Shown here in pieces: positions 4,694 to 22,040 of a stretch of 33,662 nucleotides of DNA. Below the pieces are notes generated by a model that saw nothing but the letters and a program-made list of their open reading frames with translations, was not told where the DNA came from and did not search any database. The translations under genes and the position numbers were made by a program. Position 1 is the stretch's first letter, and each line of letters opens with the position of its first letter. The DNA lies in IMG/VR virus record IMGVR_UViG_3300035698_009495, positions 1-33,662 of that record; one strand, 5' to 3'. The stretch is from a virus.

Positions 4694-4721
4694 TGGGGTT
4701 TCTCAGTGGAAAAGTAGTAAT

Positions 4722-4746: not shown

Positions 4747-4763
4747 TATAAGGAGAGAGTCAA

Positions 4764-5300
4764 ATGGAACTTGCAGTCTTCAGGTTCAGTTCAATGTCAG
4801 ACAGCACACTCGGTATCCTCATGGAGGTGGACAGGAAGCCCCCGTACGTCCCAACCAAGTTTCTGGCCTATACCATTGAAGACGAGTACCGGACCAAGAA
4901 GGTATCTGGCGAGACGCGCATTCCGGCTGGTCGCTATCGGATTATCCTTCGCAAGGAGGGGGGATTTCACTCCAAGTATCTGGCAAAGTTTGGCGATGAC
5001 TTCCATCATGGAATGCTGTGGCTTCAGGATGTACCCAACTTCGAATACGTCCTGATCCATATCGGCAACTCGGACGAGGACACGGCAGGATGCCTCTTGG
5101 TCGGAGACTCCTCCTTCCAGAACCTCACAGAGGAAGGAGCCCTCGGCAGCAGCACTGCTGCATACCGAAGGATCTATCCCCTGATCGTAAGTCGTCTCCT
5201 TGCAGGCGAAGACGTATGGATCACCTATCATGACTCTGTTATTCCTCCAGAGCCAACGGAGATTCCACCCAGCCACCAACCCCCTGCGCGATTTCGTTGA
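4764..5300 (+). CDS. DUF5675 family protein
   Basis: This 178-residue protein matches the DUF5675 pattern: a first strand (MELAVFRFSSMSDSTLGIL), a conserved ...YTIEDEYRTKKVSGETRIPAGRY segment, MLWLQDVPNFEYVLIHIGNSDEDTAGCLLVG in the middle, and a variable Pro-rich tail. The family is common in phages and prophages, often near lysis or tail genes, and its biochemical role is not established. ATG 4764 has AAGGAGAG 6 nt upstream. It is the only plus-strand gene between 1 and 11.6 kb, read divergently from the ribbon-helix-helix gene, and its last 62 nt overlap the convergent giant glycosyltransferase gene, so the two transcripts collide. Confidence 0.85.
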   Translation: MELAVFRFSSMSDSTLGILMEVDRKPPYVPTKFLAYTIEDEYRTKKVSGETRIPAGRYRIILRKEGGFHSKYLAKFGDDFHHGMLWLQDVPNFEYVLIHIGNSDEDTAGCLLVGDSSFQNLTEEGALGSSTAAYRRIYPLIVSRLLAGEDVWITYHDSVIPPEPTEIPPSHQPPARFR

Positions 5301-7494
5301 GCGAGGTGACCTGTCCAAGTCGGGCATCCAACTGCGCATCGTAATCGCGCAGTTGGTGCTCGCGCTTCTTGCTTGCCAGCAGATACTCGACCAGCGTGTC
5401 GATCTGCGCGAGCATGCTGGTGAGACTGAAGTTCTCCTCGATGTGCGTCCGGTAAGCCTCAGAGTCATAAGGACCCTGTAGCAGACGACGCAGATCCCGG
5501 CTGTCGGTGAACGTGTCTTCCCAGATGGCTCCCTGTCGATCATAGATCAGGGGCTTGATTCCCATGCACATCGCCTCGGCAATCCCAAAGCCAAAGCTCT
5601 CCACGATGGAGGGCGACATGAGATAGTCCATGCCATCCAACCATTCCACTTTCTGGTGAGCTTCGATCCAGCCGTAGTACCAGACATTCGGCATGGACGC
5701 CACGGCATGCTGGAACCAATACTGCAAGTGGTTGTCTTGGAATGTCCCGGCGATGTGGAACTCGTAGTCTGGATTCGCCTTCGCGCATTCGACCAACAAG
5801 GGGAGGTTCTTCTTGTTGTTCATGTAGCCGAGATAGGCGATGCGCTTGCCGTGCTCGCGCTTCCTGAATGGGTAGGCCGCAGTGTTCACGCCATTGGGAA
5901 TGATGGAGTGATCGACGCGCTCAAGCTGATCTGGCCAGCGCAAGGCGAAGAGGTCTCGGATATGAGGGGCCACGAAGACAAGGTGGTCCACTGTATCCCA
6001 GTTGCAGTTGGCAGGCACGTCGGTGAATGCCTCATAGCTATGCAGGCGACAGACCACCGGCACCTCCCATCCACGCATGGCGACCTCTTGGATATTCTGG
6101 TCAGCCCATTCCACCCACGTGAAGTCAGCCCACCCATGCCATCGACTGTCCAGAGCCTTGCGCGTGGCGACATGCCAGTTGTTGCTCATGTGACGGGCGA
6201 TGTCGCTGCTGAAGCTGCCGAGCGAATCGAGCATCAGAAAGTTCTCACGGTTGTCGCGTGAGATCTTCTGTCGAAGAGTGTCCTTGAAGTGCTCTCGCTT
6301 GGTGATCAGGAAGCGATCCTCTGGACGCCAACGGATAGCCTCCTGACAAACCTCCAGTGCTTCCTCCAAGCGATCCAGGGCTTCCAGACATTTCATGCGC
6401 ATGATGATCGGCATGTAGGTGTAAGCCGAGCCCTGACAGAACATGACGGTGAATGGGGCCTTGACGGTCTGGCCGATCTTCAGCCAATGGATGCACTCTT
6501 CCCACTTCTCCTCAGCGAAGGCGATCTCAGCAAGGAGGATGTAGGGCTCACGACGCTGCCATTGAATCTGGATCGATCGCACTATATGTTCACGGGCCTT
6601 TGCGTAGTCCTGCTTGTGCCTCAGATACATGAGACCTAGCTGCTGTCGCGCTTGGTAGACCTCCTCGCCAAACTTGGGCGACTTCTTCAGATACCTCTCA
6701 TACCACCAGATGGCTTTGCCAGTCTCTCCCATGTCAGCATAGGAGTTGGCGATATAGAAGTAGGGTCGGGTGTCATCGGGATTCTTCTTGATGTCACCCT
6801 TGAGGCCGTCGAGGTTCATGCGCTTACGCTGCACCTTGCGCTTCTGCTCGCGATCTGCTGGCATGTTGTGGATGATGCAGACCTCAGGACAACCCACGGC
6901 ACGCGTCGATTCGTATCCGTCCAGATGATTGTGGACCTTCGACTTGTATTTGATCTTGCCGTTGTTCCTGAAGAGTCTAGGCTGGAGAAAGAACAACTGT
7001 GGGATGCGATCATCGCCCACGTTCATGCACAGGTTGAAGCAGGCCACGTCGAAATTCTCATCGAAGCCATGGGCGAGTACTTGTTCGATAAAGCTGCGAG
7101 AAGTGAGGATCTGGCGAGAAGTCGGATCAAGCTCGTAGATCGAGGCCATGTTCTCCAGAAGGAGATCATTGTCGTCCGACAACCATTCATGCCCATCGAG
7201 AATCAGAATCATCGATCCATTGGCTCGCTCGATGGCCTGATTGCGAGCGCCAGAGAAGTCATTGTTGAAATCAAACTCGAAATAGTCAGTGGCATACTTC
7301 CGAGCGATCTCTGGCGTGTCGTCAGTGCATTTCCGGTCTACGCCGATGACGATCTCATCCACAAGGTCTTTGACGCTCAGGATTGCCTGCTCCAGCGTCT
7401 CTCCTTCATTGTGGACCACCATACAGAGGGAAATGCTTTCACGGCTCTCAGGAGGGCTTAGAAGCGCTTCTGAGGGGGGTGCTTGGTCTTCCAT
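5239..7494 (-). CDS. multidomain glycosyltransferase: GT2 - TPR - GT-B
   Basis: The 751-residue protein has three parts. Residues ~20-230 are a GT2 domain: SLCMVVHNEGETLEQAI, VDEIVIGVDRKCTDDT, ARNQAIERANGSMILILDGHEW (metal motif DGHE instead of DxD). Residues ~230-420 are helical repeats of TPR type (YFYIANSYADMGETGKAIWWYERYL, CLEALDRLEEALEVCQEAI). Residues ~440-720 are a GT4-like domain with IIPNGVN, KRIAYLGYMNNKKNLPLLVE and SIVESFGFGIAEAMCMGI. It may add two sugars in sequence, with the TPR part holding a protein acceptor; that is inference. I chose ATG 7494 (GGAG 6 nt upstream) because an in-frame codon at 7530 lies inside a terminator hairpin. Confidence 0.88.
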   Translation of the reverse strand: MEDQAPPSEALLSPPESRESISLCMVVHNEGETLEQAILSVKDLVDEIVIGVDRKCTDDTPEIARKYATDYFEFDFNNDFSGARNQAIERANGSMILILDGHEWLSDDNDLLLENMASIYELDPTSRQILTSRSFIEQVLAHGFDENFDVACFNLCMNVGDDRIPQLFFLQPRLFRNNGKIKYKSKVHNHLDGYESTRAVGCPEVCIIHNMPADREQKRKVQRKRMNLDGLKGDIKKNPDDTRPYFYIANSYADMGETGKAIWWYERYLKKSPKFGEEVYQARQQLGLMYLRHKQDYAKAREHIVRSIQIQWQRREPYILLAEIAFAEEKWEECIHWLKIGQTVKAPFTVMFCQGSAYTYMPIIMRMKCLEALDRLEEALEVCQEAIRWRPEDRFLITKREHFKDTLRQKISRDNRENFLMLDSLGSFSSDIARHMSNNWHVATRKALDSRWHGWADFTWVEWADQNIQEVAMRGWEVPVVCRLHSYEAFTDVPANCNWDTVDHLVFVAPHIRDLFALRWPDQLERVDHSIIPNGVNTAAYPFRKREHGKRIAYLGYMNNKKNLPLLVECAKANPDYEFHIAGTFQDNHLQYWFQHAVASMPNVWYYGWIEAHQKVEWLDGMDYLMSPSIVESFGFGIAEAMCMGIKPLIYDRQGAIWEDTFTDSRDLRRLLQGPYDSEAYRTHIEENFSLTSMLAQIDTLVEYLLASKKREHQLRDYDAQLDARLGQVTSLNEIAQGVGGWVESPLALEE

Positions 7495-7511
7495 GGGATC
7501 TCCATATATGC

Positions 7512-7548
7512 AAAAAGCCGACGCCCCCAATATTGGAAGCGTCGGCTT
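7512..7548 (-). terminator. rho-independent terminator after the capsid operon
   Basis: Arms AAGCCGACGC (7515-7524) and GCGTCGGCTT (7539-7548) are perfectly complementary over 10 bp; the loop itself contains the palindrome CCAATATTGG. Read on the minus strand, the hairpin is followed by TTTTT. It lies between the last head-region gene (stop at 7616) and the glycosyltransferase gene (start 7494), so it separates structural from glycan genes or sets their ratio by read-through. Confidence 0.85.
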
Positions 7549-10058: not shown

Positions 10059-10757
10059 TTACGATGCCTTGGCAGCTTGTGCCAGAGTGGGATTCTCGTC
10101 AGCAACGAGTTTACGCGCCTCGGCCTGAGCCGCAGCGTAATCGTTGAACTGGACCGTATCGCTGGCCATGAGTTCGCGCGACTTCGTGCGAACGGCTGTC
10201 CAGTATTCGGTCTTCGGATCGCTGACTACCGTTTCGGTATCGCTGTCGCCCTGCTCTGTGAGCAAAGCGGCGTCGATCACGGGACGGGCCGCGATAATGC
10301 CGTCAAAGACATCGGGACTGTTGAATGCCAGAGTGCGCATAGCAGGAACCACATCTGCGCCATCGGCGTTCTTGGTCACATTGACCTCGGACGGATATGC
10401 CTTGCGAGATTCGATGGCGAGCTTGATGCGCTCTTCGCCATCGGACTGCTTGCGTTCATCTTCGACCGCAGTCAGTCTCTCGGAAAGCTGTACGACCTCA
10501 CCCTGAAGGACTTCCTTCTCAGTAGTGAGGCGCTGAACATTCTCTTGAAGCTGGACGGTCTGTGTTTCGTCCTGCAACTTCGTCTCTGGATCTTTGTCTC
10601 CAGCGTCAGGCTGTGCTTCCAGCTTGGCGTTGAGTTCATCGATCTGGGTCTGAAGCGTAGGAATCTGACCGACCTTCTCCGACAGAGCAGTGATGGCATC
10701 CTCAATAGAATCCTCATCACCGATGCTCAGCAGCTTACGAAGGGTCTCTTCGTTCAT
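10059..10757 (-). CDS. nested scaffold protein (internal start of the protease gene)
   Basis: In the frame of the protease gene, ATG 10757 (MNEETLRKLLSIGDED) is preceded by GGAG 8 nt upstream and begins exactly where the coiled-coil region starts. Translation here would give a 232-residue protein consisting only of scaffold. Nested scaffold genes within the protease gene are established for Mu (gpI/gpZ) and lambda (gpC/gpNu3). The sequence shows the start and the site; that both products are made is inferred. Confidence 0.6.
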   Translation of the reverse strand: MNEETLRKLLSIGDEDSIEDAITALSEKVGQIPTLQTQIDELNAKLEAQPDAGDKDPETKLQDETQTVQLQENVQRLTTEKEVLQGEVVQLSERLTAVEDERKQSDGEERIKLAIESRKAYPSEVNVTKNADGADVVPAMRTLAFNSPDVFDGIIAARPVIDAALLTEQGDSDTETVVSDPKTEYWTAVRTKSRELMASDTVQFNDYAAAQAEARKLVADENPTLAQAAKAS

Positions 10758-11624
10758 TGCATGCTCTCCATCATCTGAAGTTTCACTGGCTCCTTCAGGA
10801 ACCAGACTTTGGACAACGTCTTCTTCGGACGCTGCGACATCCTCCATCGCAATCGGGACAAAGGCTCTACGAACCTTCTTCCATTGCTCTGGAGAGTTGA
10901 ATGAGACACCACCGTCGTCAGTGGGCTCGAAGTCTACCTGAAACAGATCAGACGACCCTGCGGAATCCCGACGCACGATGACATTGTCATCTCTCACGTC
11001 TTCGATCCAGTAATTGGTCGCCTCATTGTCCCGGTATGTTCTGTAGAACTGTTGCGTGACTGCTTGCACCTTCTCGGAAATACTCTCGTTGCTCGTCAGC
11101 GCCAGAATGGTCTCAGCAAGCTTGTCGTCTACTGAGAGCATCAGTGGAACAACGTCTTTCGACGTCTGCGCCAAAGTCACGGGAGACATCCCCGGCAGGA
11201 ACGGTCTGTTGGTCAGCGCAAAGGCGAGGAGCTTGGCTCCCACGCTTTGACCGGATTCTGGATTCGTGTAGGCCCAAGTAAACTCTGGACTCACAAACCT
11301 GAATTCCTCATTGTCGATAAATTCTCGCGCTGCATCAGTCCATCGGACTTCAGCCATGAGCGAGAGCCTATCGTCGCGCTGCTCTTTGAACAGGTTGACT
11401 AGCCAGCCAGCCGCACGATTCTCTTCGGGAGAGCCGTCTCTTGCACTGTTGTGATTGTAATCGACGGCTATCCGGTCAGGCTCGAAGTTCGCCAGAACTT
11501 GATCCATGGTGTCTTCGGAAATTTCAAAGACGCCATATCGTGGGTGGGTAAACTCTCCAGTGCGCATGATCTCGACGGGCGCAGCTACGTCGGAGAGCTT
11601 GACCGATATGAAAAAATGATCCAT
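10059..11624 (-). CDS. Mu gpI-like prohead protease fused to scaffold
   Basis: Residues ~15-160 match the Mu-like I protein (protease) family: FEPDRIAVDYNHNSA, AAGWLVNLFKEQ, WTDAAREFIDNEEFRFVSPEF, LLAFALTNRPFLPGMSPVTLA. Residues ~160-285 are an acidic insert with a small beta module (YWIEDVRDDNVIVRRD). From ~290 on, a coiled coil (IPTLQTQIDELNAKLEAQ, LQENVQRLTTEKEVLQGEVVQL) and a helical tail form the scaffold. The protease matures the prohead and removes scaffold. It is the first gene of the capsid operon. An internal start at 10757 probably makes free scaffold, as Mu I/Z and lambda C/Nu3 do. Confidence 0.88.
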   Translation of the reverse strand: MDHFFISVKLSDVAAPVEIMRTGEFTHPRYGVFEISEDTMDQVLANFEPDRIAVDYNHNSARDGSPEENRAAGWLVNLFKEQRDDRLSLMAEVRWTDAAREFIDNEEFRFVSPEFTWAYTNPESGQSVGAKLLAFALTNRPFLPGMSPVTLAQTSKDVVPLMLSVDDKLAETILALTSNESISEKVQAVTQQFYRTYRDNEATNYWIEDVRDDNVIVRRDSAGSSDLFQVDFEPTDDGGVSFNSPEQWKKVRRAFVPIAMEDVAASEEDVVQSLVPEGASETSDDGEHAMNEETLRKLLSIGDEDSIEDAITALSEKVGQIPTLQTQIDELNAKLEAQPDAGDKDPETKLQDETQTVQLQENVQRLTTEKEVLQGEVVQLSERLTAVEDERKQSDGEERIKLAIESRKAYPSEVNVTKNADGADVVPAMRTLAFNSPDVFDGIIAARPVIDAALLTEQGDSDTETVVSDPKTEYWTAVRTKSRELMASDTVQFNDYAAAQAEARKLVADENPTLAQAAKAS

Positions 11625-11665
11625 TAGGAAACAACCTGTGGAGGATGGGTTTCGTTATGGGTACA

Positions 11666-11694
11666 GGGGGCAGAACCCAGAGGACTCTGCCCCC
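11666..11694. promoter_or_regulatory. strong hairpin in the leader of the capsid operon
   Basis: GGGGGCAGA (11666-11674) and TCTGCCCCC (11686-11694) form a perfect 9-bp GC-rich stem with an 11-nt loop, about 40 nt upstream of the protease start. There is no T-run on either side, so it is not an obvious terminator. It would form in the 5' untranslated RNA of the minus-strand capsid operon. Confidence 0.5.
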
Positions 11695-11719
11695 CGACCC
11701 TCCCCAAGGCGAACATCAC

Positions 11720-11745
11720 CATGAAGACCTGACGCGGCCTTCATG
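11720..11745. repeat. inverted repeat CATGAAG/CTTCATG
   Basis: CATGAAG (11720-11726) pairs with CTTCATG (11739-11745) across 12 nt. It is the second of several inverted repeats in the 303-nt gap between the two divergent operons. Confidence 0.4.
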
Positions 11746-11757
11746 AGAATAGTCGGA

Positions 11758-11784
11758 GGATTTTTCTCCCGAAGATAAAAATCC
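11758..11784. repeat. inverted repeat GGATTTTT/AAAAATCC
   Basis: GGATTTTT (11758-11765) pairs with AAAAATCC (11777-11784) across an 11-nt loop. The AT-rich arms could be a protein-binding site or the weak stem of a terminator for transcripts crossing the gap in either direction. Confidence 0.4.
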
Positions 11785-11813
11785 AGCCCCTGTCGCCATG
11801 GAACTGGCGTAAG

Positions 11814-11830
11814 TGTCTGGAACACAGACA
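11814..11830. promoter_or_regulatory. inverted repeat upstream of the -35 box
   Basis: TGTCTG (11814-11819) and CAGACA (11825-11830) form a short dyad centred about 32 bp upstream of the TTGACA box at 11851. Position suits an activator site, but the arms are only 6 bp. Confidence 0.3.
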
Positions 11831-11850
11831 GTTGAGTATCATTCTGAGTC

Positions 11851-11880
11851 TTGACAAGTCTTATAGCTGGTCCCTATATT
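11851..11880 (+). promoter_or_regulatory. sigma70-type promoter of the plus-strand operon
   Basis: TTGACA (11851-11856, perfect -35) is followed after 18 bp by TATATT (11875-11880, -10; CTATAT with a 17-bp spacer is equivalent). Transcription should start near 11887, directly at the palindrome at 11888-11910, about 40 nt before the first start codon. It is the clearest promoter in the window. Confidence 0.75.
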
Positions 11881-11887
11881 CTGTCAC

Positions 11888-11910
11888 AGGGGGTTAACGG
11901 TTAACCCCCT
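11888..11910. promoter_or_regulatory. perfect 23-bp palindrome at the transcription start, candidate operator
   Basis: The half-site AGGGGGTTAAC (11888-11898), a central G, and the exact inverse GTTAACCCCCT (11900-11910) make a perfect dyad. It lies between the -10 box and the ribosome binding site AAGGAGG (11913-11919). A bound repressor would block initiation; in RNA the arms would make a hairpin 2 nt from the binding site. I saw no second full copy in the window. Confidence 0.7.
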
Positions 11911-11927
11911 TGAAGGAGGGAGAATGC

Positions 11928-12239
11928 ATGTTGAGTAGGAGTCCCACCGAGGTCGAGGGGATGATCCGACGCATCACCTATGCTCTGGAAACCACCCCAG
12001 AGCACGACCTGTTCGGCAAAGACAACATCAATGAGATTGCCAGAATGAAGTCGGATTTAGATCTGCTGAAGAAGATCCAGAAAGATCATCTGGAACAGAA
12101 ACGACATCAGGCCGCGAAGACCATACAACTGAGGGACCGTAGGTCTGTGGTCCTGTGGCTGATGGGGATCAATCACTCGCTACCGTATGCGCCTATCGAG
12201 AAAGGAGATTTCATTGGGAACACAGATTATACAGGGTGA
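11928..12239 (+). CDS. hypothetical protein, first gene of plus-strand operon, 103 aa
   Basis: ATG 11928 follows AAGGAGG by 8 nt; another ATG 4 nt earlier is in a different frame. The protein is helical and charged (MLSRSPTEVEGMIRRITYAL, MKSDLDLLKKIQKDHLEQKRHQAAK) with a probable coiled coil at residues ~40-65. I recognise no family. As the promoter-proximal gene next to an operator it could be the regulator of the operon, but no helix-turn-helix is evident. Its end overlaps the methyltransferase start. Confidence 0.75.
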   Translation: MLSRSPTEVEGMIRRITYALETTPEHDLFGKDNINEIARMKSDLDLLKKIQKDHLEQKRHQAAKTIQLRDRRSVVLWLMGINHSLPYAPIEKGDFIGNTDYTG

Positions 12240-13347
12240 CTCATTGCACATCGGGGATCTCATAAAAACCCCTGTGCATACCGTGATCACAAGCCCTCCT
12301 TATTACTCTCAACGTGACTATCACGTGCCTCCCACTGAGTGGGATGATGGCACCTCGTTTTGTTTAGGCATGGAGCCTGATCCAGATCTGTTCGTAGCGC
12401 ATCTATGTGACATCTTCGATTCTGTGAAGGGCGTGCTGCGAGACGATGGAACGATGTGGGTCAACCTTGGCGACACCTATGCCGGTGGTGGTGGCATCAC
12501 GGGAGTTCCAGAAGATTGGGAATCTCTCAGCACCAAGAACCGGGACAAGTATATCAAGAACGCGCCGTCGCGTGACGCCAAGAAGATCGGGGCCAAGAAG
12601 AAGGACCTATTACTGGTGCCCTTCCGATTCGCCACGGAGATGCGTGATCGTGGTTGGTATCTGCGACAGGTGATCATATGGTCGAAGCCGAACCCTGCCA
12701 GAGAATCTGTTGTTGATCGCCCAACGACGCAGCATGAATACATCTTCCTGTTCTCGAAGAGCGCCACCTACCACTACGATCAGGAAGCTGTGCGCATGGA
12801 GTCTGGAGCCAACAGGGGCTCCGTGTGGGATCTCACGGTTACCAACTTCAAGGGGCAGCACTTCGCCACGTTCCCCGTTGAGCTAGTTGAACGTTGTATC
12901 AAGGCTGGGACATCCGAACATGGTGTGTGTGACAAGTGCGGTGCGCCCTACGAGCGCGTTATCGAAAAAGGTGAGCCCGACAAGGAATGGCAGAAGAAAT
13001 CTGGAGGGAATGAAGATGGTGAATACTTCGGTGAAGCTGTCAAAGATTATGAGTCTGGAGGAGCAGAGAATCCGTCAGATGTTAAACGACGAATCCTCGC
13101 TGGAATGGTCGCACGGAAGACAGTCGGATGGAAGGCCACGTGCAACTGCTTCGGCGCTTACCCTGTACCTGCGAGAGTGCTTGATCCATTTTCTGGAGCA
13201 GGAACAACCCCGATGGTTGCTGACCGGCTCGGGCGCAATGGCATCGGCGTCGAACTTAAAGGTGACTACGCAAACATGAGCGACAACCGGACGTTTGATG
13301 ACAACCCCTTGTTCCACCAGCCTCATCTCAAGAAAGATCTGTCTTGA
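12214..13347 (+). CDS. DNA N4-cytosine/N6-adenine methyltransferase with zinc insert
   Basis: Catalytic motif IV TSPPYY stands near the N-terminus (residues ~26-31) and the SAM-binding motif DPFSGAGTT near the C-terminus, the beta-class order. VIIWSKPNPARES and HEYIFLFSKS are further conserved blocks. Between them is a cysteine insert (CDKCGAPYERV ... CNCFG), probably a zinc finger, as in many phage methylases. It methylates an exocyclic amino group of adenine or cytosine, perhaps to shield phage DNA; no nuclease partner is visible. I prefer TTG 12214 (AAGGAG 6-7 nt upstream) over ATG 12187, which lacks a site. Confidence 0.88.
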   Translation: MGTQIIQGDSLHIGDLIKTPVHTVITSPPYYSQRDYHVPPTEWDDGTSFCLGMEPDPDLFVAHLCDIFDSVKGVLRDDGTMWVNLGDTYAGGGGITGVPEDWESLSTKNRDKYIKNAPSRDAKKIGAKKKDLLLVPFRFATEMRDRGWYLRQVIIWSKPNPARESVVDRPTTQHEYIFLFSKSATYHYDQEAVRMESGANRGSVWDLTVTNFKGQHFATFPVELVERCIKAGTSEHGVCDKCGAPYERVIEKGEPDKEWQKKSGGNEDGEYFGEAVKDYESGGAENPSDVKRRILAGMVARKTVGWKATCNCFGAYPVPARVLDPFSGAGTTPMVADRLGRNGIGVELKGDYANMSDNRTFDDNPLFHQPHLKKDLS

Positions 13348-13793
13348 CAGAATGGTGGAGAGACTGTCCCTCGGGACTCTGGAGAAATGCATGGCCGGAT
13401 AAGCCATTGTTCTCGCTAGCAGATCACTCATGGAAGATTCAGAGCATCGCGGGCAGGGTCAGGTTGGACGCCGACCCTGATGGCAGCGACACGCTCGTGG
13501 GTCGCTGCGGTGAACTATCAGAAGATCTGGCACAAACCTTCCAAAAGTGGGGCTTTGATAGTGTGTCCGTGGTGTCCAACATGACACATTGTTGGAATTA
13601 CGTGGACGGATGGTTGGTGGATGTGACCATGACGCAGTTCTATCGAAACGCACCAGAAGTAGTGCTTTTCCCGTTCCATGAGTATCACCCTGATGATTTT
13701 CCCATGTGGTGGCAGATTGAAGAAGTGGAGAATCTTTTTCCAGATGGAAACCGAACCATGGAGGAGCTATGCGATCCACGCCCGTCTTCTTAG
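13344..13793 (+). CDS. transglutaminase-like / papain-fold protein, 149 aa
   Basis: Three blocks recall the Cys-His-Asp triad of transglutaminase-like proteins: GRCGELSEDLAQTFQKWG (Cys55 at the start of a helix), THCWNYVDGW (His82) and LVDVTMTQFY (Asp93). The C-H and H-D spacings (27 and 11) fit the fold. Members act as peptidases, amidases or acyl-transfer enzymes; the substrate here is unknown. Translation starts at TTG 13344, overlapping the TGA of the methyltransferase gene, so the two are coupled. The end overlaps the RuvC-like gene by 25 nt. The call is by pattern only. Confidence 0.6.
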   Translation: MTEWWRDCPSGLWRNAWPDKPLFSLADHSWKIQSIAGRVRLDADPDGSDTLVGRCGELSEDLAQTFQKWGFDSVSVVSNMTHCWNYVDGWLVDVTMTQFYRNAPEVVLFPFHEYHPDDFPMWWQIEEVENLFPDGNRTMEELCDPRPSS

Positions 13794-14266
13794 GAATCGA
13801 TCCCGGTCCCACGACCAGTGGGGTGGCGCTCTGGGACGACGCAGTGCAGAGGGTGATATGGTCTGCCGACAAGATGCCCACCGATGAAGTAATCAGACAG
13901 ACCAACAATCTGGACGAAACAGGCACAGTTGTCGTCACCACGATTGAAGAGGTCGTCAGCTACGGTAGGCCAGTCGGCGTAGAGGTATTCCAGACCGTCT
14001 TCAATGCTGGACGCATCGCACAGGCATGTGAAGTGCTCGTACGCAACACATGGGTCCGTGTGCCCTTCAGGATCGTAGGGAAACACTTCTGCAATTCAGG
14101 ATCAGGCGTGAAGGAGTCCTATGTGCGTCAGGCCCTACGAGACCGGTTCCCAGAGGGCAAGGGCACCATCAAGGCTCGCGGTCCATTCTACGGAGTCAAG
14201 GGACACGCATGGAGTGCTTTGGCACTCGCGATCATGGAGGCTGATACCCGTGCCGGTCGCACGTAA
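13769..14266 (+). CDS. RuvC-like RNase H-fold nuclease
   Basis: The start FLGIDPGPTTSGVALWD is the first strand and turn of RuvC-type resolvases, with Asp11 as the first metal ligand. TTIEEVVSYGRPVGVEVFQT supplies the second acidic position (Glu60/61) and GRIAQACEVL the following helix. The last conserved block reads KGHAWSALALAIMEAD, where RuvC usually has an Asp before the Ala; here it is Ser, with Asp159 as a possible substitute. It may resolve branched DNA before packaging. ATG 13769 has GGAGGAG just upstream. Confidence 0.78.
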   Translation: MRSTPVFLGIDPGPTTSGVALWDDAVQRVIWSADKMPTDEVIRQTNNLDETGTVVVTTIEEVVSYGRPVGVEVFQTVFNAGRIAQACEVLVRNTWVRVPFRIVGKHFCNSGSGVKESYVRQALRDRFPEGKGTIKARGPFYGVKGHAWSALALAIMEADTRAGRT

Positions 14267-14795
14267 GAACGGTGAGGCCGTCTGGATGCCTCCCCCTTCG
14301 CCAAGACAATATGACGCGCTGGTATTTATCCAGAGCTTTGTCAATGCTTCGGGTGGTTACTTCCCACCCATGGAAGACATCGGCAAGGCTCTCGGTATCA
14401 GAAAGAACTCAGCACAGGCCCACGTCGAAGCGCTGGTGAGGAAGGGATATATCAACAGGAAGCCGGGGCAAAAGGGCAGACCCAACATGCACTGCCTGCA
14501 CACTTCGTCGTGGAAGTTCGACATACAGATGCTCGATTTCGTAGATCTGGCATGTTCGGTTTTCATGCACAGTGGAAAGGCTACAAAAACGCAGATCGAT
14601 ATGGCACAGGAGATCTGCGACAACGTCAGAAAGGAACTTTTCAATGCCGGCCAAAGCAAGAAGCCCACAGACAACAGAAGTGGATTCGGTTTCAACTGGG
14701 ACAAGCCGCAGCGCAGAGGGGATAGAGAAGACGGCGTCGTTCAGCACGGACAGGAAGCATCGCTACGTCCTACAGAGGATCTGGAGAAGGAATAA
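14250..14795 (+). CDS. LexA-type winged-helix protein without protease domain, 181 aa
   Basis: Residues ~10-75 match the LexA N-terminal DNA-binding domain: SPRQYDALVFIQSFVNASGGYFPPMEDIGKALGIRKNSAQAHVEALVRKGYINRKPG is the region, with wing residues after KGYI. The rest has no S24 Ser-Lys peptidase motifs, so it should not self-cleave. The start is GTG 14250 with GGAGG 9 nt upstream; it overlaps the end of the RuvC-like gene. A cleavage-blind LexA-like binder could repress host SOS genes or the phage palindrome at 11888; both are inference. Confidence 0.72.
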   Translation: MPVARKNGEAVWMPPPSPRQYDALVFIQSFVNASGGYFPPMEDIGKALGIRKNSAQAHVEALVRKGYINRKPGQKGRPNMHCLHTSSWKFDIQMLDFVDLACSVFMHSGKATKTQIDMAQEICDNVRKELFNAGQSKKPTDNRSGFGFNWDKPQRRGDREDGVVQHGQEASLRPTEDLEKE

Positions 14796-15204
14796 GCCTC
14801 GCTGTTCCTTCATCGGGCTCAACCCATCGACTGCTGATGAGGTGCAGAACGACCCCACAGTGACTCGCTGCCAGAACTATGCAGAGAAGTGGGGATACGG
14901 TGGTCTGGTCATGTTGAACATCTTCGGATGGCGCGACACCGACCCCAAGGGCATGAAGGCCGTCGATGATCCAATAGGTCCAGACAACGATCACTGGATC
15001 TATAAGATGGCCAGAAACTCTGGAATCGTCATATGTGCATGGGGAACACATGGAGCGCACAAAGATCGAGGCGAAGCCGTTGAGGCTATGCTGCGTGATC
15101 ACGATGTAGCACTGCACCACCTCGGCCTGACCAAGGATGGATTTCCTCGTCATCCATTGTATCTCAGGGCAGATCTGGAACCAACTGAATGGGAGATAAG
15201 TTGA
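14644..15204 (+). CDS. DUF1643 family protein
   Basis: The conserved core is FIGLNPSTADEVQNDPTVTRCQNYAEKWGYGGLVMLNIFGWRDTDP (region ~80-125), followed by GIVICAWGTHG, and ends GLTKDGFPRHPLYL, the DUF1643 signature found in phages and bacteria. Its activity is not established. ATG 14644 has AAAGGAAC 7 nt upstream and gives a 152-nt overlap with the winged-helix gene; no start codon lies nearer the conserved region, so I keep it. The N-terminal ~45 residues are Ser/Thr-rich and probably disordered. Confidence 0.8.
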   Translation: MPAKARSPQTTEVDSVSTGTSRSAEGIEKTASFSTDRKHRYVLQRIWRRNKPRCSFIGLNPSTADEVQNDPTVTRCQNYAEKWGYGGLVMLNIFGWRDTDPKGMKAVDDPIGPDNDHWIYKMARNSGIVICAWGTHGAHKDRGEAVEAMLRDHDVALHHLGLTKDGFPRHPLYLRADLEPTEWEIS

Positions 15205-15399
15205 ATGGCCTCTATTCCTACGGCTCCTGAATTACTGGAGCAAATCGACGAAGAGGGAGTGCGCCACTTTGCTCACTGGGCCCACCTCTACATCGAGGCA
15301 CTGAAGAAAGAAGGTATGAGTCGGGATGACGCGCACGCGTTCATACTCGCCTTCGTGCGCGACATGAGACAGCACCCAACAGAGGGGGCTGACGCATGA
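15205..15399 (+). CDS. small hypothetical protein, 64 aa
   Basis: A helical protein (MASIPTAPELLEQID, HFAHWAHLYIEALKKEGM, RDDAHAFILAFVRDMRQ) with three predicted helices and no recognisable family. ATG follows the DUF1643 stop immediately, with GGGAGA about 8 nt upstream, and its stop overlaps the phosphoesterase ATG (ATGA), so it is translated with its neighbours. Confidence 0.7.
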   Translation: MASIPTAPELLEQIDEEGVRHFAHWAHLYIEALKKEGMSRDDAHAFILAFVRDMRQHPTEGADA

Positions 15400-16043
15400 A
15401 GGTACGCATCGTTGGCGACGTGCACGGGAAGACCGAAGAGTATGTTGACTTGGTGAAGGATCAGGTCGCCTCTGTTCAAGTGGGCGACATGGGATTTCGG
15501 TACGAAGAACTGGACGCACTGAATGCCAGTGATCACGTCTTCGTACCGGGAAACCACGACAACTACGACAACCTCCCACCGCGTGCCTTGGGAGACTATG
15601 GTGTGGGGCTCGTAGGCTATCCGTCAGACGTCACTGGAGACGTCTTCCCGTTCTTCTACGTGAGAGGGGCTGACAGTCCAGACAAGGATTACAGGATAGA
15701 ATACGAAGCCGCACACGGGAAGTCATGGTGGCCCGAAGAGCAGCTATCACCTCGCGCCATGGATGAGGCACTGCAAGCCTACACTGCCTTCAGGCCGAAT
15801 GTGGTGATCACACACGATGCCCCTGCGTCGATCCTCCGTCATATCCCAAGCCATGAGAATCACTTTGTGGTCTCAGACACCGAGAAGCTTCTGGGTAGGA
15901 TGTTTGAGGCGCATCAGCCACAGTGGTGGTTCTTCGGACACTGGCATTGTGACTGGATCGATGAGGTCAACGGCACCACATTCAGATGTCTGGACGAGAT
16001 GTCTCACGTCGATTTCAACACAGGGACGTGGCAACCAGAATAG
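15396..16043 (+). CDS. calcineurin-like metallophosphoesterase
   Basis: All five metal-binding blocks are present: GDVHGK (residues 7-12), VGDMG (~29-33), PGNHDNYDN (~50-58), THDAP (~139-143) and GHWHCD (~181-186). The fold binds two metals and hydrolyses phosphoesters; phage members act on phosphoproteins, nucleotides or nucleic-acid ends, and the substrate is not evident here. Length (215 aa) is normal. It is the last gene of the plus-strand operon, and a hairpin follows at 16078. Confidence 0.88.
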   Translation: MKVRIVGDVHGKTEEYVDLVKDQVASVQVGDMGFRYEELDALNASDHVFVPGNHDNYDNLPPRALGDYGVGLVGYPSDVTGDVFPFFYVRGADSPDKDYRIEYEAAHGKSWWPEEQLSPRAMDEALQAYTAFRPNVVITHDAPASILRHIPSHENHFVVSDTEKLLGRMFEAHQPQWWFFGHWHCDWIDEVNGTTFRCLDEMSHVDFNTGTWQPE

Positions 16044-16077: not shown

Positions 16078-16120
16078 GAACGCCACCGACTCCCATTGCT
16101 CAAGGGAATTGGTGGCGTTC
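16078..16120. terminator. hairpin between convergent operons
   Basis: GAACGCCACC (16078-16087) and GGTGGCGTTC (16111-16120) are perfectly complementary; inside the loop TCCC and GGGA add 4 bp. It lies between the end of the plus-strand operon (16043) and the end of the portal operon on the minus strand (16142). On the minus strand it is followed by TTGATTTTG, a poor U-run; on the plus strand there is none. A termination or RNA-protection role is likely, the strength uncertain. Confidence 0.6.
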
Positions 16121-16346: not shown

Positions 16347-18665
16347 CTACACCTTCAAACTATAGACCCACATACATCGACATGCACCTTGGCCTTCGCA
16401 GAACGCCAGAGGTGGCATCAGTTCGTGGTAACGTGCGCTGTCCACTGTGACTACCTCGCCGTCAACGTCCTTGCAGGGCTTGCATCGATTATCGTCGAGG
16501 AGAGTAGACAGCGTGGCGTCCTGTATCAAGCCCTGATTGCTCAGTTCTGTGGCTTCGGCTGCGCGTCCCATAGAGAATGATTCTGACGTGTTGTGCGTGG
16601 CCATCATGCGAGCCTCGCGTTCCACGGAGGATGTCATCTCGACAACGATGGTGTCCAGATCCTCCTCAGTGAATGCGCTGCCCTTGGTGCGCTGAATGTC
16701 GAGCGCCAGACGATGTGCAGACTCGACAGTCTTGCGACTGAGACGCTGGACGATGTCCTGTGTCCTGCCCTGCATGATCCCCTGAGCCTCAACAGGAGTC
16801 AGGGGCTCGTCGCGCAGTCTGAACGGGAGTTCCACCACAGAGCCACCAGATCGCGCCTGAGAGGCTATCTCTTCTCGGACGGCTCGACGGCCATCTGCAT
16901 AGAGATCGGCCAACAGGGGCCGAATGTGGTTCTCCATACGCTTCTCATCCATCGCCCCGAGGTCGGTCATCATGATCTCAGAGGTGCGCCCTGAGGACAG
17001 GGCTCGACGCATGTTGTCACGCATGACGTTCACCCAGTCGTCCCTGACCACCAGAACGCGGTGCATGATCCTGTCGCGAGTCGAGTCCAGCGTGTGCTCG
17101 ATCTCATTGAGGCTCATGTGGGACTCCAGTTCAGTGGGGTCCCGGCGAGGGTGATCATCGGAGGCGTGAACCACCTCCTCGCCATCATGGTCTTCAAACG
17201 TAGATTGGCGAATCTGCATGTCGGACGCTGCTACCTGACGACCGGCGCGATTGGACGTGGCCGCACGGGCTGGTCGACCACCTTCGCTCGCAGCCGTCCT
17301 GTCCTTGCTCCTGTCGCGATCATCACGGGTGGCCTGCTCTGCGGCGTCCTGCTCCTCCAAGTTCTTCCCACGACGCCCTAAGCGCTCCTGCTGCTCATTG
17401 TAGGTGTCTTCCTCCTTGACTGGGAGGTTGAGCAGATCGCGCAGACGATTCTCAAGATCCAGATCAGGAGTGATGTAGGTGTCACCTACGATGCGAATCG
17501 CGCCCATCAGTTCAGACAGGGAGATCGCACCGATATTCGTTGCCTTGAGCAGAGGTCGGGGCTTGTTGGGGAAGTTCATGTCCAAGATCGGCCAGAGCAT
17601 CTGACGATTGACAACTCCAGCAATCCACTCTGTCAGTCCCAGAAGTGCATCGTAGAAGAAGTTGGTCGTCACCTCGCCAAGCGCACGAGTTCCCGAACTG
17701 TCACCGAAGTTGATGAACTGCGCCAGACCGGCCTTGGCGATCTCTTGGTTGTGATGGTCGATGGTGTGCATCACATCCAATGCCTGCGAAGTCATCTGGA
17801 CAATGTTTATGCCCCACCCCTGTGGCGTCACAAGATAGCTCTGTTCGCCACCCTTCCAATTCTTGCCGATGTCCTTGGCGTGCGCCAGATCCTCCGAGTC
17901 CCATTCCTCAGGAAGCTCGATGTGAGGCACACCGATGGCGAAGCGCTCGTGGCGAATCGCATCGATCCGGTAGATGTTGTCCTTGATATACCAGTGCTTG
18001 TAGGCACCACGCAACAGGGACATCCCCTCGTAGTTGTTGCCCTCCTGTTGATAGGAGAACATCACCAACTTGTCCAAGTTGATATCGACTTCGCCAGTAT
18101 CTGCGATCCCGGCGACTGTGCTTACGCGACGTTTCTTGACGTCGGTCTTGAGCTTCTGCGTCACACGGACCAGATTGTCTTGTTTGTCAGTCCACCACTT
18201 ATACAGCGTCGATGCCAGACGTGGCGAAACCTTCTGGAACTTCCACTGTCCGTCTTCGATAGCGTAGACCTTCTCAAACCACGAGTATCCAGCCCATAGG
18301 CAGGATAGAGCGTGACGCAGGAAGATCTGGAAATCGACCCTGTTGAACAACTGGTCCCTGGCAAACCTCAGGTGCTCTTCAGTAACAGGAGTCCCACCGT
18401 CGCTATCGCTCTCGCGAGGAGCCTCGATGTCCCAGTCTGCTGCCAGAACAGGAAGCTGGATCGCATACAGAAGCGCTTGAACCTGTGCGTCGGTCCTGCG
18501 CATCTTGTCATACGTCTCGACTCCCTTGAGTCCAGTCAGGTTCTTGTTGAACTCTTCGTTGTCGATGAATCCACCGACGAATGAGGTTCCTCCTTGGCCC
18601 AATTCTCTCAGTAGGGCTTTGTCGTTCGTCTTCTGTTCGACCGTTCTCGGGTCTTGCTTAGCCAT
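16347..18665 (-). CDS. portal protein (DUF935, Mu gp29-like) fused to MuF-like domain
   Basis: Residues ~35-440 match the Mu gp29-type portal family (DUF935): MRRTDAQVQALLYAIQLPVLAADWDI, FLRHALSCLWAGYSWFEKVY, LVMFSYQQEGNNYEGMSLLR, KAGLAQFINFGDSSGTRALGE, LLNLPVKEED. Twelve portal copies form the DNA entry ring. A disordered charged linker (~440-510) leads to a C-terminal domain ending CKPCKDVDGEVV ... FCEGQGACRCMWVYS, the cysteine-rich end typical of MuF (SPP1 gp7-like) head proteins, which in Mu is a separate gene (gpF). Length 772 aa fits both together. ATG 18665 has GGAGAG 8 nt upstream. Confidence 0.88.
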   Translation of the reverse strand: MAKQDPRTVEQKTNDKALLRELGQGGTSFVGGFIDNEEFNKNLTGLKGVETYDKMRRTDAQVQALLYAIQLPVLAADWDIEAPRESDSDGGTPVTEEHLRFARDQLFNRVDFQIFLRHALSCLWAGYSWFEKVYAIEDGQWKFQKVSPRLASTLYKWWTDKQDNLVRVTQKLKTDVKKRRVSTVAGIADTGEVDINLDKLVMFSYQQEGNNYEGMSLLRGAYKHWYIKDNIYRIDAIRHERFAIGVPHIELPEEWDSEDLAHAKDIGKNWKGGEQSYLVTPQGWGINIVQMTSQALDVMHTIDHHNQEIAKAGLAQFINFGDSSGTRALGEVTTNFFYDALLGLTEWIAGVVNRQMLWPILDMNFPNKPRPLLKATNIGAISLSELMGAIRIVGDTYITPDLDLENRLRDLLNLPVKEEDTYNEQQERLGRRGKNLEEQDAAEQATRDDRDRSKDRTAASEGGRPARAATSNRAGRQVAASDMQIRQSTFEDHDGEEVVHASDDHPRRDPTELESHMSLNEIEHTLDSTRDRIMHRVLVVRDDWVNVMRDNMRRALSSGRTSEIMMTDLGAMDEKRMENHIRPLLADLYADGRRAVREEIASQARSGGSVVELPFRLRDEPLTPVEAQGIMQGRTQDIVQRLSRKTVESAHRLALDIQRTKGSAFTEEDLDTIVVEMTSSVEREARMMATHNTSESFSMGRAAEATELSNQGLIQDATLSTLLDDNRCKPCKDVDGEVVTVDSARYHELMPPLAFCEGQGACRCMWVYSLKV

Positions 18666-18799: not shown

Positions 18800-20386
18800 T
18801 CAGAACTCCATGCTTATTACGTCGTCTTTGATTGCCATTGGCTCATGCACTGTCTCCAGTGGCATGTCCCCGAAGTGTGATGTTCGCTTGGCACTTGCGT
18901 TGGCCTCAAGGATGTGGCTCTGGTTTCCAATATCCGACATCTGTGCCCAAGAAGCAAAGCCTACACATTCTGCTCTATCTGGAGATTTCTCTCCACGATC
19001 CAGCATCTTGTCTTTGGTCTCTGCCATCAGGCGACCATCTGATCTGAAATCAAACTTCCTTGCTGCCAGTTGGTGGATCAACTTCTTGTCGTTGGGGATG
19101 GAGACGCCGATGTGAGGAGCACCTTCTCCTTCCTCAAACGTCTTACGGAATCTCTCTCGGAGACTCCAGATCATTTCTGTGCCCAGATTGAAAAACTTCT
19201 TCGCATCCTTGGGACTCTGCCCCGCGTTGACAGGGTAGATGTTCTTCTGCTTCAACTCCCTCAGTCGATCTGTGACGCCCCCACCAAGCCCTGCGTCGTC
19301 GATGCAGACTCGCTTGACGGTTTGACATAGGTTGCGAACCCTTCCAGCAGTGGACATGAGGTTTTTGCCGATGTAGTGATCAACGAAATCGAAACGTCCC
19401 CCCTTGAAAGCTCCCAGAACGGTCTCGTCATTACCAAATCTGGCTATGTCAGCGCCACCCCCTGAGAATAAGGCGTCTTCAACCACGGCGCGTTCCACGG
19501 CTGACATGACCCATGATAGGGGTATAATCGTATCCTCTGTCTCATCTGGAAACTCTCCACACACCATGCTGACGAACAGGGGGGAGAGTTCGCCAAGGTC
19601 GGCTGAGTCGTCGGCCACCATTCCGAGATTGATACGGGAGGACTCGTAAGCAGACATCTCAAAGGTGTGCCATCGGTGTGCTTGATCACCCCGGCAGATA
19701 TCATAGAAAGGCCCAGAAGGCGAACCGGGGCTGCTGAGGCAGATCCACCAAAACTGTCCATTGGGGTTACCACGAAGAATCCTCCTGACGGCGTTGAAGA
19801 TTTCTGGCTTGATCGCCTTGGCCTCATCCATCAGCACCATGACGTAGTCGCCGTGGACACCTTCGAAGGTTGCCTCCTCGGTAGCTGCACGTCCGAACGC
19901 CGCCCAATCAGGCCCAAGGTCAACGGAGGTCTTGCCGAGACGGTCAAGACTGGCAGCGATCGGCTGCGTGGCTCGTCCAGCCCACGTCGCGATCTCGCGC
20001 CATAGCTGCTCGCGTAGCTGCGACCACGTTCCTGCTGTGGTGACCACGCGCCCACCGGGGTAGTTGTCGAGGAACCAGTGAACCATGATCGCTGCTGTCG
20101 ACGTCTTGGCGATACCGTTGGCCCACTTGAAGGAATAGAAGCCGGGTTCAGCCATCTTGTCCAGCGCGTCGGCCTGATAAGACTTTCTCGAATCCAGAGA
20201 AAGCTTGGCGTCCTTCATCTGGCGACGACACCACTGATGGCTATTGGAAGGCTGTCCTGCGAGCCAGTCTTCCAGTTCGTTGCGGCCTCGATACTTGGCC
20301 AGCTTGATTTCAAGGTGATCCTCGGCCCATTTGGATGGGTGCGCTCTGTAGTAGAGCATCTTACGTGCAGAGTCAGATACGTTCAT
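18800..20386 (-). CDS. large terminase subunit (TerL)
   Basis: The 528-residue protein has the two TerL halves. ATPase: Walker A region KWANGIAKTSTAA (Lys94-Thr95), Walker B YVMVLMDEAKAI (Asp187-Glu188) and CLSSPGSPSG as the coupling motif. RNase H-like nuclease: GGADIARFGNDETVL, VKRVCIDDAGLGGGVTD and SPDRAECVGFA carry acidic metal ligands. It cuts concatemers and drives DNA into the prohead through the portal. The Walker A lacks two of the usual glycines. ATG 20386 overlaps the ParB-like gene stop (ATGA); the ribosome site is weak, so coupling is likely. Confidence 0.92.
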   Translation of the reverse strand: MNVSDSARKMLYYRAHPSKWAEDHLEIKLAKYRGRNELEDWLAGQPSNSHQWCRRQMKDAKLSLDSRKSYQADALDKMAEPGFYSFKWANGIAKTSTAAIMVHWFLDNYPGGRVVTTAGTWSQLREQLWREIATWAGRATQPIAASLDRLGKTSVDLGPDWAAFGRAATEEATFEGVHGDYVMVLMDEAKAIKPEIFNAVRRILRGNPNGQFWWICLSSPGSPSGPFYDICRGDQAHRWHTFEMSAYESSRINLGMVADDSADLGELSPLFVSMVCGEFPDETEDTIIPLSWVMSAVERAVVEDALFSGGGADIARFGNDETVLGAFKGGRFDFVDHYIGKNLMSTAGRVRNLCQTVKRVCIDDAGLGGGVTDRLRELKQKNIYPVNAGQSPKDAKKFFNLGTEMIWSLRERFRKTFEEGEGAPHIGVSIPNDKKLIHQLAARKFDFRSDGRLMAETKDKMLDRGEKSPDRAECVGFASWAQMSDIGNQSHILEANASAKRTSHFGDMPLETVHEPMAIKDDVISMEF

Positions 20387-21108
20387 GCGACGATATCCAC
20401 GGTCCTACCCATGTCTCGCAGCACCCTGCGCACGTCTTTGGCGTAGGTGCCAAATTCATCTGGAGGATTCTGACGAATGTATTGCGCCATCTTATCCATC
20501 TTGGATTTCCACTTCAGGAAGAGCATCACGTCGCGTTGACGCGAGTCCATCTGCCCTTGTCTTTGTCGAGTCACACGCTTCAACTGGCGATGCGCCTCGG
20601 TCACAGTAATCTTGCCAGCGTTGACTTGCATGATCACATCTGAGTTCCCAGACTCCATGACCTTACGAAGTCTATAGTAGTGTGCCTGCGAGGTTTCAAG
20701 CTCTTGCGCTACGCGACGGCGAATGTCTGTGATCCCCTCGCCGGTCTCCTCTTGAAGATACAGACGCTCAAGTTCTACGCCTGCCTTCCAGATCATCCCC
20801 TGTGTCAGGTGTCGCCTCAGGAGATTGTCCAGAATGAGATGCTTGCGAATCAGCGCCTCATCAATCAACTCGCCCCTGATGACAACGGGCACCTCTTTGA
20901 CGCCCAACTCTTTGAGAGCACGGAGCCTCTGTGATCCACAAATCACAAATCCACTGGGGCATAGCTCCAGAGGATGCATGATCCCTCGGTCCTTGATATC
21001 AGCCTTCAGTTCATCGAACTCATCCTGATCCATCTGGCCGAAGATCTGGTCAGATAACGGATGAGGCTCAAGGCTGGCTACCTCTTTATGCGTCAGATCT
21101 TCCCACAT
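20383..21108 (-). CDS. ParB/Srx-fold protein with helical domain, 241 aa
   Basis: Residues ~8-80 match the ParB N-terminal domain: LEPHPLSDQIFG, FDELKADIKDRGIMHPLELCP, the CTP/NTP-binding-box-like GSQRLRALKELGVKEVPVVI. A helical part follows with a helix-turn-helix-like stretch (DIRRRVAQELETSQAHYYRLRKVM) and a basic tail. Such phage proteins can be nucleases, partition-like clamps or adaptors. ATG 21108 is chosen because the conserved domain starts there; longer versions would overlap the sigma-like gene in another frame. It is directly upstream of terL, so a DNA-site role in packaging is possible but unproven. Confidence 0.78.
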   Translation of the reverse strand: MWEDLTHKEVASLEPHPLSDQIFGQMDQDEFDELKADIKDRGIMHPLELCPSGFVICGSQRLRALKELGVKEVPVVIRGELIDEALIRKHLILDNLLRRHLTQGMIWKAGVELERLYLQEETGEGITDIRRRVAQELETSQAHYYRLRKVMESGNSDVIMQVNAGKITVTEAHRQLKRVTRQRQGQMDSRQRDVMLFLKWKSKMDKMAQYIRQNPPDEFGTYAKDVRRVLRDMGRTVDIVA

Positions 21109-21736
21109 ACGCGCTTGCTTCAATCTGGAGAAATTCTCTCGGCGTCTGCCACTCGTTGGACAGTTGTCCAAGGGTTGCGCCGTCAGAGAGTGCAGATAGC
21201 AGGGAACGTATGTGAATGGGTGGTTTGTCGATGGTGGGCTCGTCTGGAGGAATTGACAGGTCGATGTCGTCAACATCGACATACTCTGGACCGTCGTGGA
21301 GGCGATCCCAAGTGGCTCCTATGGTGACACCATAGACGAAGCACACTTCCTCAGATGTTGGATTGCGACCGATGCGCTGCCGAAGGCTTTCAACCTTCTT
21401 GAGGGCATCCTTTTCCTTGCGAGTTTCCCACTCAGGCTTGGTTACAGTACCCTCGGACGTGCGAGTAAACTGGACAACTGCCCGGCGCACTGAGATCTTG
21501 GCGAAAGCTCCAAATCGGCAATTGGGGTTCTTGGCAATGAACTCGTCAACGCTCTCACAGAGCGCCACGGCTCCTACGCCATTAAGGTCTTCATACTGAA
21601 CTTCGCCACCACCGTTCACATACTGTCGAGCTATGTTGTGCGTGATGCCCACATGAGATGCCACCATCTCGGATCTGGCAGTTCCATTGCCAGTTCGGAT
21701 CTCGATCCAGAGCTTGCTCTCAGTGGTCGTATTCAA
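21086..21736 (-). CDS. sigma-70 family factor-like protein, 216 aa
   Basis: RSEMVASHVGITHNIARQYVNGG, YEDLNGVGAVALCESVDEF and FGAFAKISVRRAVVQFTR reproduce sigma region 2 (core binding, -10 recognition); LRQRIGRNPTSEEVCFVYGV resembles region 3. Region 4 is not clear: LGQLSNEWQTPREFLQIEA might be a divergent -35 helix-turn-helix. It may direct host RNA polymerase to phage late promoters. The best start is TTG 21736 after a purine-rich AAAGAGAAA; no ATG is available. It precedes the ParB-like and terminase genes. Confidence 0.68.
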   Translation of the reverse strand: MNTTTESKLWIEIRTGNGTARSEMVASHVGITHNIARQYVNGGGEVQYEDLNGVGAVALCESVDEFIAKNPNCRFGAFAKISVRRAVVQFTRTSEGTVTKPEWETRKEKDALKKVESLRQRIGRNPTSEEVCFVYGVTIGATWDRLHDGPEYVDVDDIDLSIPPDEPTIDKPPIHIRSLLSALSDGATLGQLSNEWQTPREFLQIEASAYVGRSDA

Positions 21737-21794
21737 AATTTCTCTTTCTTACCAACAGGGAGGATGGTAAGTGGTGTTCGCCTTGAGGGCCTAC

Positions 21795-21977
21795 TTACGT
21801 CGTCGAAAGACGAGTTCTGGTGCGTGTGCTACGACCAGATCGACGCGCTACTCGCGCCCGGTCGGAGCCGCCAACGCCGGACCCTTCCAGTTCGGCGTCT
21901 GTGGTGGACTCGAAGAAAGACTGTGCTGTCTGCACGCCCTGCTTCTGGCCACCAACAGATATCTGACCTCTACCCAT
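21795..21977 (-). CDS. small disordered Gly/Ser/Arg-rich protein, 60 aa
   Basis: ATG 21977 (MGRGQISVGGQKQGVQTAQS) follows AAGGGAAG by 6 nt. The second half is low complexity with many Gly, Ser and Arg-Thr repeats (RRSGRSTRTRTRLSTT), which suggests a flexible nucleic-acid-binding or virion-associated tail. A CTTCGCGAAG palindrome overlaps the ribosome binding site. No family recognised. Confidence 0.5.
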   Translation of the reverse strand: MGRGQISVGGQKQGVQTAQSFFESTTDAELEGSGVGGSDRARVARRSGRSTRTRTRLSTT

Positions 21978-22040
21978 TGTGTACTTCCCTTCGCGAAGAG
22001 AGTGGCCCCTGAAAACCGGAAGCATCGTGGACCACGAACG

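What the first reader, a model, noticed from the sequence alone, without database searches (positions are those of the whole stretch)
11851..16043. Self-regulated plus-strand cassette inserted inside the head-morphogenesis module
The head genes are minus-strand and would normally run terminase, portal-MuF, protease/scaffold, capsid. Here a 4.2-kb opposite-strand operon splits portal-MuF (ends 16347) from protease (starts 11624). It has its own perfect -35 promoter, a palindromic operator and a hairpin after it. Contents: DNA methyltransferase, transglutaminase-like protein, RuvC-like nuclease, LexA-type binder, DUF1643 protein, phosphoesterase. The opposite orientation, separate control and enzyme set suggest an independently acquired unit, perhaps DNA modification/defence or an anti-host system.
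Basis: partly seen in the sequence, partly recalled or inferred. Interest (0 to 1): 0.7.

Follow-up and report, generated by a model that had tools for sequence, protein, structure and literature searches.

The report
Reverse-strand accessory operon in phage head genes
An uncultured tailed phage carries a small eight-gene block, read in the opposite direction and with its own promoter, between two of its capsid-building genes; its one known close relative has the same block in the same place, so it is a settled accessory operon of this lineage and not a fresh acquisition or a new defence system.

Summary
Window 11851-16043 is a plus-strand operon of eight tightly packed ORFs. It lies between the minus-strand portal-MuF gene (16347-18665) and protease gene (10059-11624), has a near-consensus sigma-70 promoter (11 of 12) and a 23-bp palindrome at its start, and ends at a convergent hairpin. 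The reading needs correcting. The only close relative found (IMG/VR contig 3300025131_004421; portal 62%, TerL 76%, MCP 73% identical) has the same block, strand, position and promoter. Core genes are B1, N4/N6 DNA methyltransferase, RuvC-like resolvase, LexA-type winged-helix protein, a ~64-aa ORF and a metallophosphoesterase; the transglutaminase-like and DUF1643 genes are extra cargo here. GC content and codon usage match the flanks. No restriction partner or defence system is recognisable. Elsewhere the block genes occur singly. Of 12 named phages with related capsids, six carry accessory genes between portal and capsid, three with some on the opposite strand (Vibrio phage 1.023.O: six genes). 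Best explanation: an old moron-like early or accessory operon with swappable cargo that divides the head genes into two transcription units. New member of a known kind, modest interest. The hairpin's T-rich tail fits a terminator of the portal unit better than of the block.

The parts
11625..11850 (.). Divergent intergenic region between protease (minus) and block (plus)
   Evidence: Partly conserved with the sister, e.g. CTGGCGTAAGT
11702..11721 (-). Conserved non-coding element TGGTGANGTTCGCCTTGGGG upstream of protease
   Evidence: 19 of 20 positions identical in the sister; only copy in the window
11659..11700 (-). Strong RNA hairpin in the protease leader; the stem is kept in the sister with a different sequence
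   Evidence: window -34.5 kcal/mol, z -4.6; sister -39.9 (fold includes a second small hairpin), z -6.3
11851..11880 (+). Sigma-70 promoter TTGACA-18-TATATT
   Evidence: sister has TTGACA-17-TATATT at the same place
11888..11910 (+). 23-bp palindrome (11-bp arms), candidate operator or 5' mRNA hairpin
   Evidence: sequence not conserved in the sister
11928..12239 (+). B1, small protein of unknown function, 103 aa
   Evidence: SD AAGGAGG; sister homologue about 28-35%
12214..13347 (+). Beta-class N4/N6 DNA methyltransferase, TTG start, 377 aa
   Evidence: Pfam N6_N4_Mtase; sister 68% with the start aligned
13344..13793 (+). B3, transglutaminase/YunG-like candidate (weak), absent in sister
   Evidence: Pfam YunG E 0.0018 below cut-off; possible C/H/D triad read from sequence
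13769..14266 (+). RuvC-like resolvase, phrog_1770
14250..14795 (+). LexA-type winged-helix protein, GTG start, no peptidase domain
   Evidence: Pfam LexA_DNA_bind; sister equivalent hits the same model and phrog_362 repressor
14644..15204 (+). DUF1643 protein, absent in sister
   Evidence: Pfam 4e-50; AlphaFold pLDDT 93
15205..15399 (+). B7, 64-aa ORF; sister has an unrelated 63-aa ORF in the same slot
15396..16043 (+). Calcineurin-like metallophosphoesterase, phrog_1649
   Evidence: sister 47%
16078..16120 (-). Hairpin at the convergent junction, T-rich tail on the minus side, likely terminator of TerL-portal unit
16347..18665 (-). Portal-MuF fusion protein (flank)
10059..11624 (-). Mu-I-type head protease, probably with scaffold (flank)

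Best explanation
A long-resident, moron-like accessory operon, probably expressed early, sits at the portal/protease junction of the head module. Shown: the opposite-strand position, a near-consensus sigma-70 promoter conserved in the sister, a conserved core gene set, and gain or loss of cargo (B3, DUF1643). Inferred: host RNA polymerase reads the operon soon after infection. The methyltransferase marks phage DNA, giving protection from host restriction or cut-site control. The RuvC-like nuclease resolves branched phage DNA before packaging. The LexA-type winged-helix protein lowers the operon's own promoter, perhaps through the palindrome at its start. The phosphoesterase and DUF1643 act on host or phage nucleic acid or nucleotides by unknown reactions. 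The head genes then form two transcription units: TerL-portal, ending at the 16078-16120 hairpin, and protease-capsid, starting from the divergent region next to the block.
For: Same block, strand, place and promoter in the sister virus. In the MTase, RuvC and MPE comparisons, differences are fewer at codon positions 1 and 2 than at position 3, with the MTase about as constrained as TerL. The sister wHTH hits a phage repressor family. GC content and codon usage match the flanks. In 6 of 12 related-capsid phages accessory genes lie between portal and capsid; in 3 (Vibrio 1.023.O, RHph_Y52, Kovu) some are on the opposite strand. A sigma-70-family gene lies beside TerL, a candidate late regulator.
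Against: No transcript data. Both genomes are fragments without replication genes, so the block could be part of a larger early set. The palindrome sequence is not kept in the sister and nothing tests binding; the wHTH proteins are only about 23-26% identical. The RuvC-like family has Trp/Ser where the last catalytic Asp would be, so activity is unproven. Comparison rests on one sister virus.
Confidence: 0.6

Rival explanations
1. A recently acquired, self-contained DNA-modification, defence or anti-host island.
For: Opposite strand, own promoter, methyltransferase plus nuclease plus regulator. DUF1643 has many bacterial chromosomal relatives.
Against: The sister has the same block. Composition is equal to the flanks. 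No restriction partner; PADLOC shows only methyltransferase models and one weak match. No flanking repeats of note. None of the loci fetched with the MTase or phosphoesterase outside the sister contains a second block gene.
Confidence: 0.1
2. The ordinary early/replication module of this phage type, of which only a piece is seen because the genome is incomplete.
For: RuvC-like and MTase genes often lie in early modules; ValentiniPuff has some 46 genes, including a DUF1643 gene, between its head genes.
Against: No polymerase, primase, helicase or SSB in the block; it is bounded on both sides by head genes in both viruses, so it cannot extend.
Confidence: 0.2
3. An antisense timing device: early transcription of the block interferes with the converging portal unit and the diverging protease unit, so that turning the block off releases head gene expression.
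For: Convergent and divergent layout, repressor-type gene inside, palindrome at the start, conserved leader element and hairpin before protease, and a phage sigma factor.
Against: Purely architectural; no transcript evidence; the junction hairpin is not clearly conserved in the sister.
Confidence: 0.08
4. Assembly chimera.
For: Metagenome-derived contig.
Against: The same junctions occur in an independently assembled sister contig; the portal-phosphoesterase junction is also seen in a second one, L003.
Confidence: 0.01

Closest known systems
Morons (transcriptionally autonomous extra genes in phage genomes; described for P-SS2, PMC2784084, and phage 0305phi8-36, PMC2147016)
   Same: Own promoter, opposite orientation, placed between structural genes, variable cargo
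   Different: Eight genes instead of one or two, kept in the sister, composition equal to the flanks, no clear terminator of its own
Portal-to-protease insertions of related-capsid phages: Vibrio phage 1.023.O gp12-17, Rhizobium phage RHph_Y52 EVC29_061-062, Arthrobacter phages Kovu/Salgado/Ottawa
   Same: Non-structural genes in the same general interval; opposite strand in Vibrio, Rhizobium and one Kovu gene
   Different: Gene content is not homologous; the Arthrobacter genes are mostly on the same strand
Orphan phage beta-class DNA methyltransferases (phrog_67)
   Same: N6_N4_Mtase fold, no recognisable nuclease partner
   Different: Target site unknown; inside a head-module operon
LexA repressor
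   Same: LexA-type winged-helix DNA-binding domain
   Different: No LexA peptidase domain, so not a self-cleaving SOS repressor

Membership tests
Moron / autonomous accessory cassette | Own promoter | tested here: met
   conserved in sister
Moron / autonomous accessory cassette | Own terminator | tested here: inconclusive
   Hairpin present, T tail only on the opposite strand
Moron / autonomous accessory cassette | Lies between genes that are adjacent in relatives | tested here: met
   No unrelated genes between the head genes in Jenst, ZS04 and KPP23
Moron / autonomous accessory cassette | Absent from close relatives (recent insertion) | tested here: not met
   Present in the only close relative; only B3 and DUF1643 are variable. 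Hence 'moron-like', not filed as a moron
Moron / autonomous accessory cassette | Deviant base composition | tested here: not met
   (null at least as large as observed in 9%)
Moron / autonomous accessory cassette | Dispensable for phage growth | not testable with these tools
   needs a cultured phage
Restriction-modification system | DNA methyltransferase | tested here: met
Restriction-modification system | Cognate restriction nuclease | tested here: not met
   No restriction-enzyme model matched in the block
LexA repressor | Winged-helix DNA-binding domain | tested here: met
LexA repressor | Autopeptidase domain | tested here: not met
   Only residues about 17-74 match LexA
RuvC-like resolvase (phrog_1770) | Family profile match | tested here: met
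   1e-15, sister 5e-9
RuvC-like resolvase (phrog_1770) | Canonical four-acid metal site | tested here: inconclusive
   D11 and E60 kept; the last Asp is replaced throughout the aligned family (HxW)

The most novel reading that the evidence does not exclude
The block is a built-in developmental switch: a repressor-controlled early operon placed in opposition inside the head genes, so that its transcription delays portal and capsid expression until its own wHTH protein and the phage sigma factor take over.
Probability: 0.08. Interest if true: 0.5.

Novelty: new member of a known kind. Interest (0 to 1): 0.3.

Why it matters
It adds a clear case of an accessory operon that has stayed in the middle of a head module across considerable divergence (about 25-38% protein difference in the head genes) while its cargo changed. 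It also indicates that the portal-to-protease interval is a recurrent place for extra genes in phages with this capsid type. It gives a specific, testable prediction about split head-gene transcription, but no new class of system.

Tried and rejected
Flanking repeats or insertion scars: none convincing. Defence system: PADLOC shows only methyltransferases and one weak hit. Rfam: nothing. DUF1643 as a uracil-glycosylase-like fold (my guess): a good AlphaFold model gave no PDB match better than E 3e-3 and TM 0.37, none a glycosylase in the 50 listed. B3 structure: single-sequence model useless, pLDDT 33. A DUF1643 search of viral contigs found no relative with exact patterns, and the portal search of bacterial genomes found none. 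A second copy of the palindrome or of the protease-leader element: none. A 14-mer shared between the junction hairpin tail and the sister turned out to lie inside TerL there, so it is chance. Block-wide DNA search of named phages: only a 143-base MTase fragment. LexA-type protein in named phages: no match.

Full report
What is there. The window is a 33,662-base virus record, probably an incomplete tailed-phage genome. Every credible gene outside the block runs on the minus strand: TerS, ParB-like genes, a sigma-like gene, TerL, portal-MuF, protease, scaffold/decoration protein, major capsid protein and a glycosyltransferase cluster. Between portal-MuF and protease lies a plus-strand operon, 11851-16043. 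It starts with TTGACA-18-TATATT (11 of 12 matches; 0.15 such sites expected per window-sized Markov sequence), followed within ten bases by a 23-bp palindrome, and holds eight tightly packed ORFs. Start codons, placed by ribosome sites and the sister sequence, differ a little from mechanical ORF calls: MTase at TTG 12214, LexA-type protein at GTG 14250.

Contents. Tool-supported: beta-class N4/N6 DNA methyltransferase, RuvC-like resolvase, LexA-type winged helix without peptidase, DUF1643, calcineurin-like phosphoesterase. B3 is only weakly YunG/transglutaminase-like. B1 and B7 are unassigned.

Conservation. Protein searches of viral contigs found one close relative, contig IMGVR 3300025131_004421 (L002, L010, L058, L072), with fragments L003 and L004 nearly identical to it in the genes they cover. 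It is colinear with the window from ParB through portal, protease and capsid to the glycosyltransferases. Between its portal and protease lies the same opposite-strand block: B1, MTase (68%), RuvC-like (36%), a LexA-type protein confirmed by Pfam, a 63-aa ORF and the phosphoesterase (47%), behind TTGACA-17-TATATT. It lacks B3 and DUF1643. So the block predates the split of these viruses, while its cargo changes. Differences at codon positions 1 and 2 are fewer than at position 3 for the MTase, RuvC-like and phosphoesterase genes; the MTase is as constrained as TerL, whereas B1 and the wHTH protein have diverged strongly. GC content and codon usage do not set the block apart, and strand skews follow gene direction.

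Co-occurrence. Forty-eight viral loci found with the methyltransferase and 19 with the phosphoesterase contain no second block gene apart from the sister. The genes do not form a travelling unit in the collections searched. The search is limited to flanks of at most 8-10 kb.

Wider context. Phages with related capsid proteins (26-34% identity) were inspected: Kovu, Salgado, Ottawa, ValentiniPuff, KPP23, RDJL Phi 2, Tedan, ZS04, RHph_Y52, Mulvp2, Vibrio 1.023.O and Jenst. Six have accessory genes between portal and capsid; three have some on the opposite strand, six genes in Vibrio 1.023.O. The interval is therefore a recurrent place for extra genes. These twelve were chosen by hand, so this is not a frequency estimate. 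Opposite-strand autonomous genes in marine siphoviruses were described before (P-SS2, PMC2784084).

Regulation. The protease leader on the minus strand holds a conserved 20-base element and a strong hairpin whose stem is kept in the sister with a different sequence; two sequences are too few for a covariation test. The junction hairpin 16078-16120 has a T-rich tail only for minus-strand transcription. Together these suggest that the head genes are transcribed as two units, one on each side of the block; this is inference. The wHTH protein is a plausible repressor of the block promoter, because its sister equivalent matches a phage repressor family, but binding is untested and the palindrome sequence is not shared.

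Verdict. It is a moron-like accessory operon, old in its lineage, of modest interest. The claims of recent acquisition and of a defence system are not supported. It is not filed as a moron in the strict sense, because absence from close relatives and deviant composition were tested and not met.

Noticed in passing
L104 2061-2966 and similar loci L099-L178: In Rhodobacteraceae chromosomes the DUF1643 gene lies in the rbfA-truB-pnp neighbourhood; a TruB-cluster protein was found in 55 of 80 loci and, in the examples looked at, directly upstream of DUF1643. This hints at an RNA or translation role for this uncharacterised family.
   Followed up: partly
21086-21736 (minus): Sigma-70-family gene beside TerL; the sister homologue passes the Pfam Sigma70_r2 cut-off. 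Candidate late transcription factor.
   Followed up: partly
837-7530 (minus): Cluster of glycosyltransferases, including a 763-aa two-domain enzyme with TPR repeats, close downstream of the capsid gene, where relatives have head-tail and tail genes; conserved in the sister.
   Followed up: no
11659-11721 (minus): Protease leader with a conserved 20-base element and a strong hairpin kept by structure but not by sequence in the sister.
   Followed up: partly
L060 6949-7347, L063 9698-10408, L064 11719-12456, L069 10913-11326: Genes called 'DNA methyltransferase' or phrog_1530 in RDJL Phi 2, KPP23, RHph_Y52 and Vibrio 1.023.O match only the C-terminal part of that family; some also match head maturation protease families, so they are probably the prohead protease and not methyltransferases.
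   Followed up: partly
13769-14266: The RuvC-like family has HxW where canonical RuvC has its last Asp pair, in all relatives aligned but one (DxW).
   Followed up: partly
20383-23390 (minus): Two ParB-domain genes, one fused to DUF4417, upstream of TerL; ValentiniPuff has a ParB-like nuclease in a similar place.
   Followed up: no
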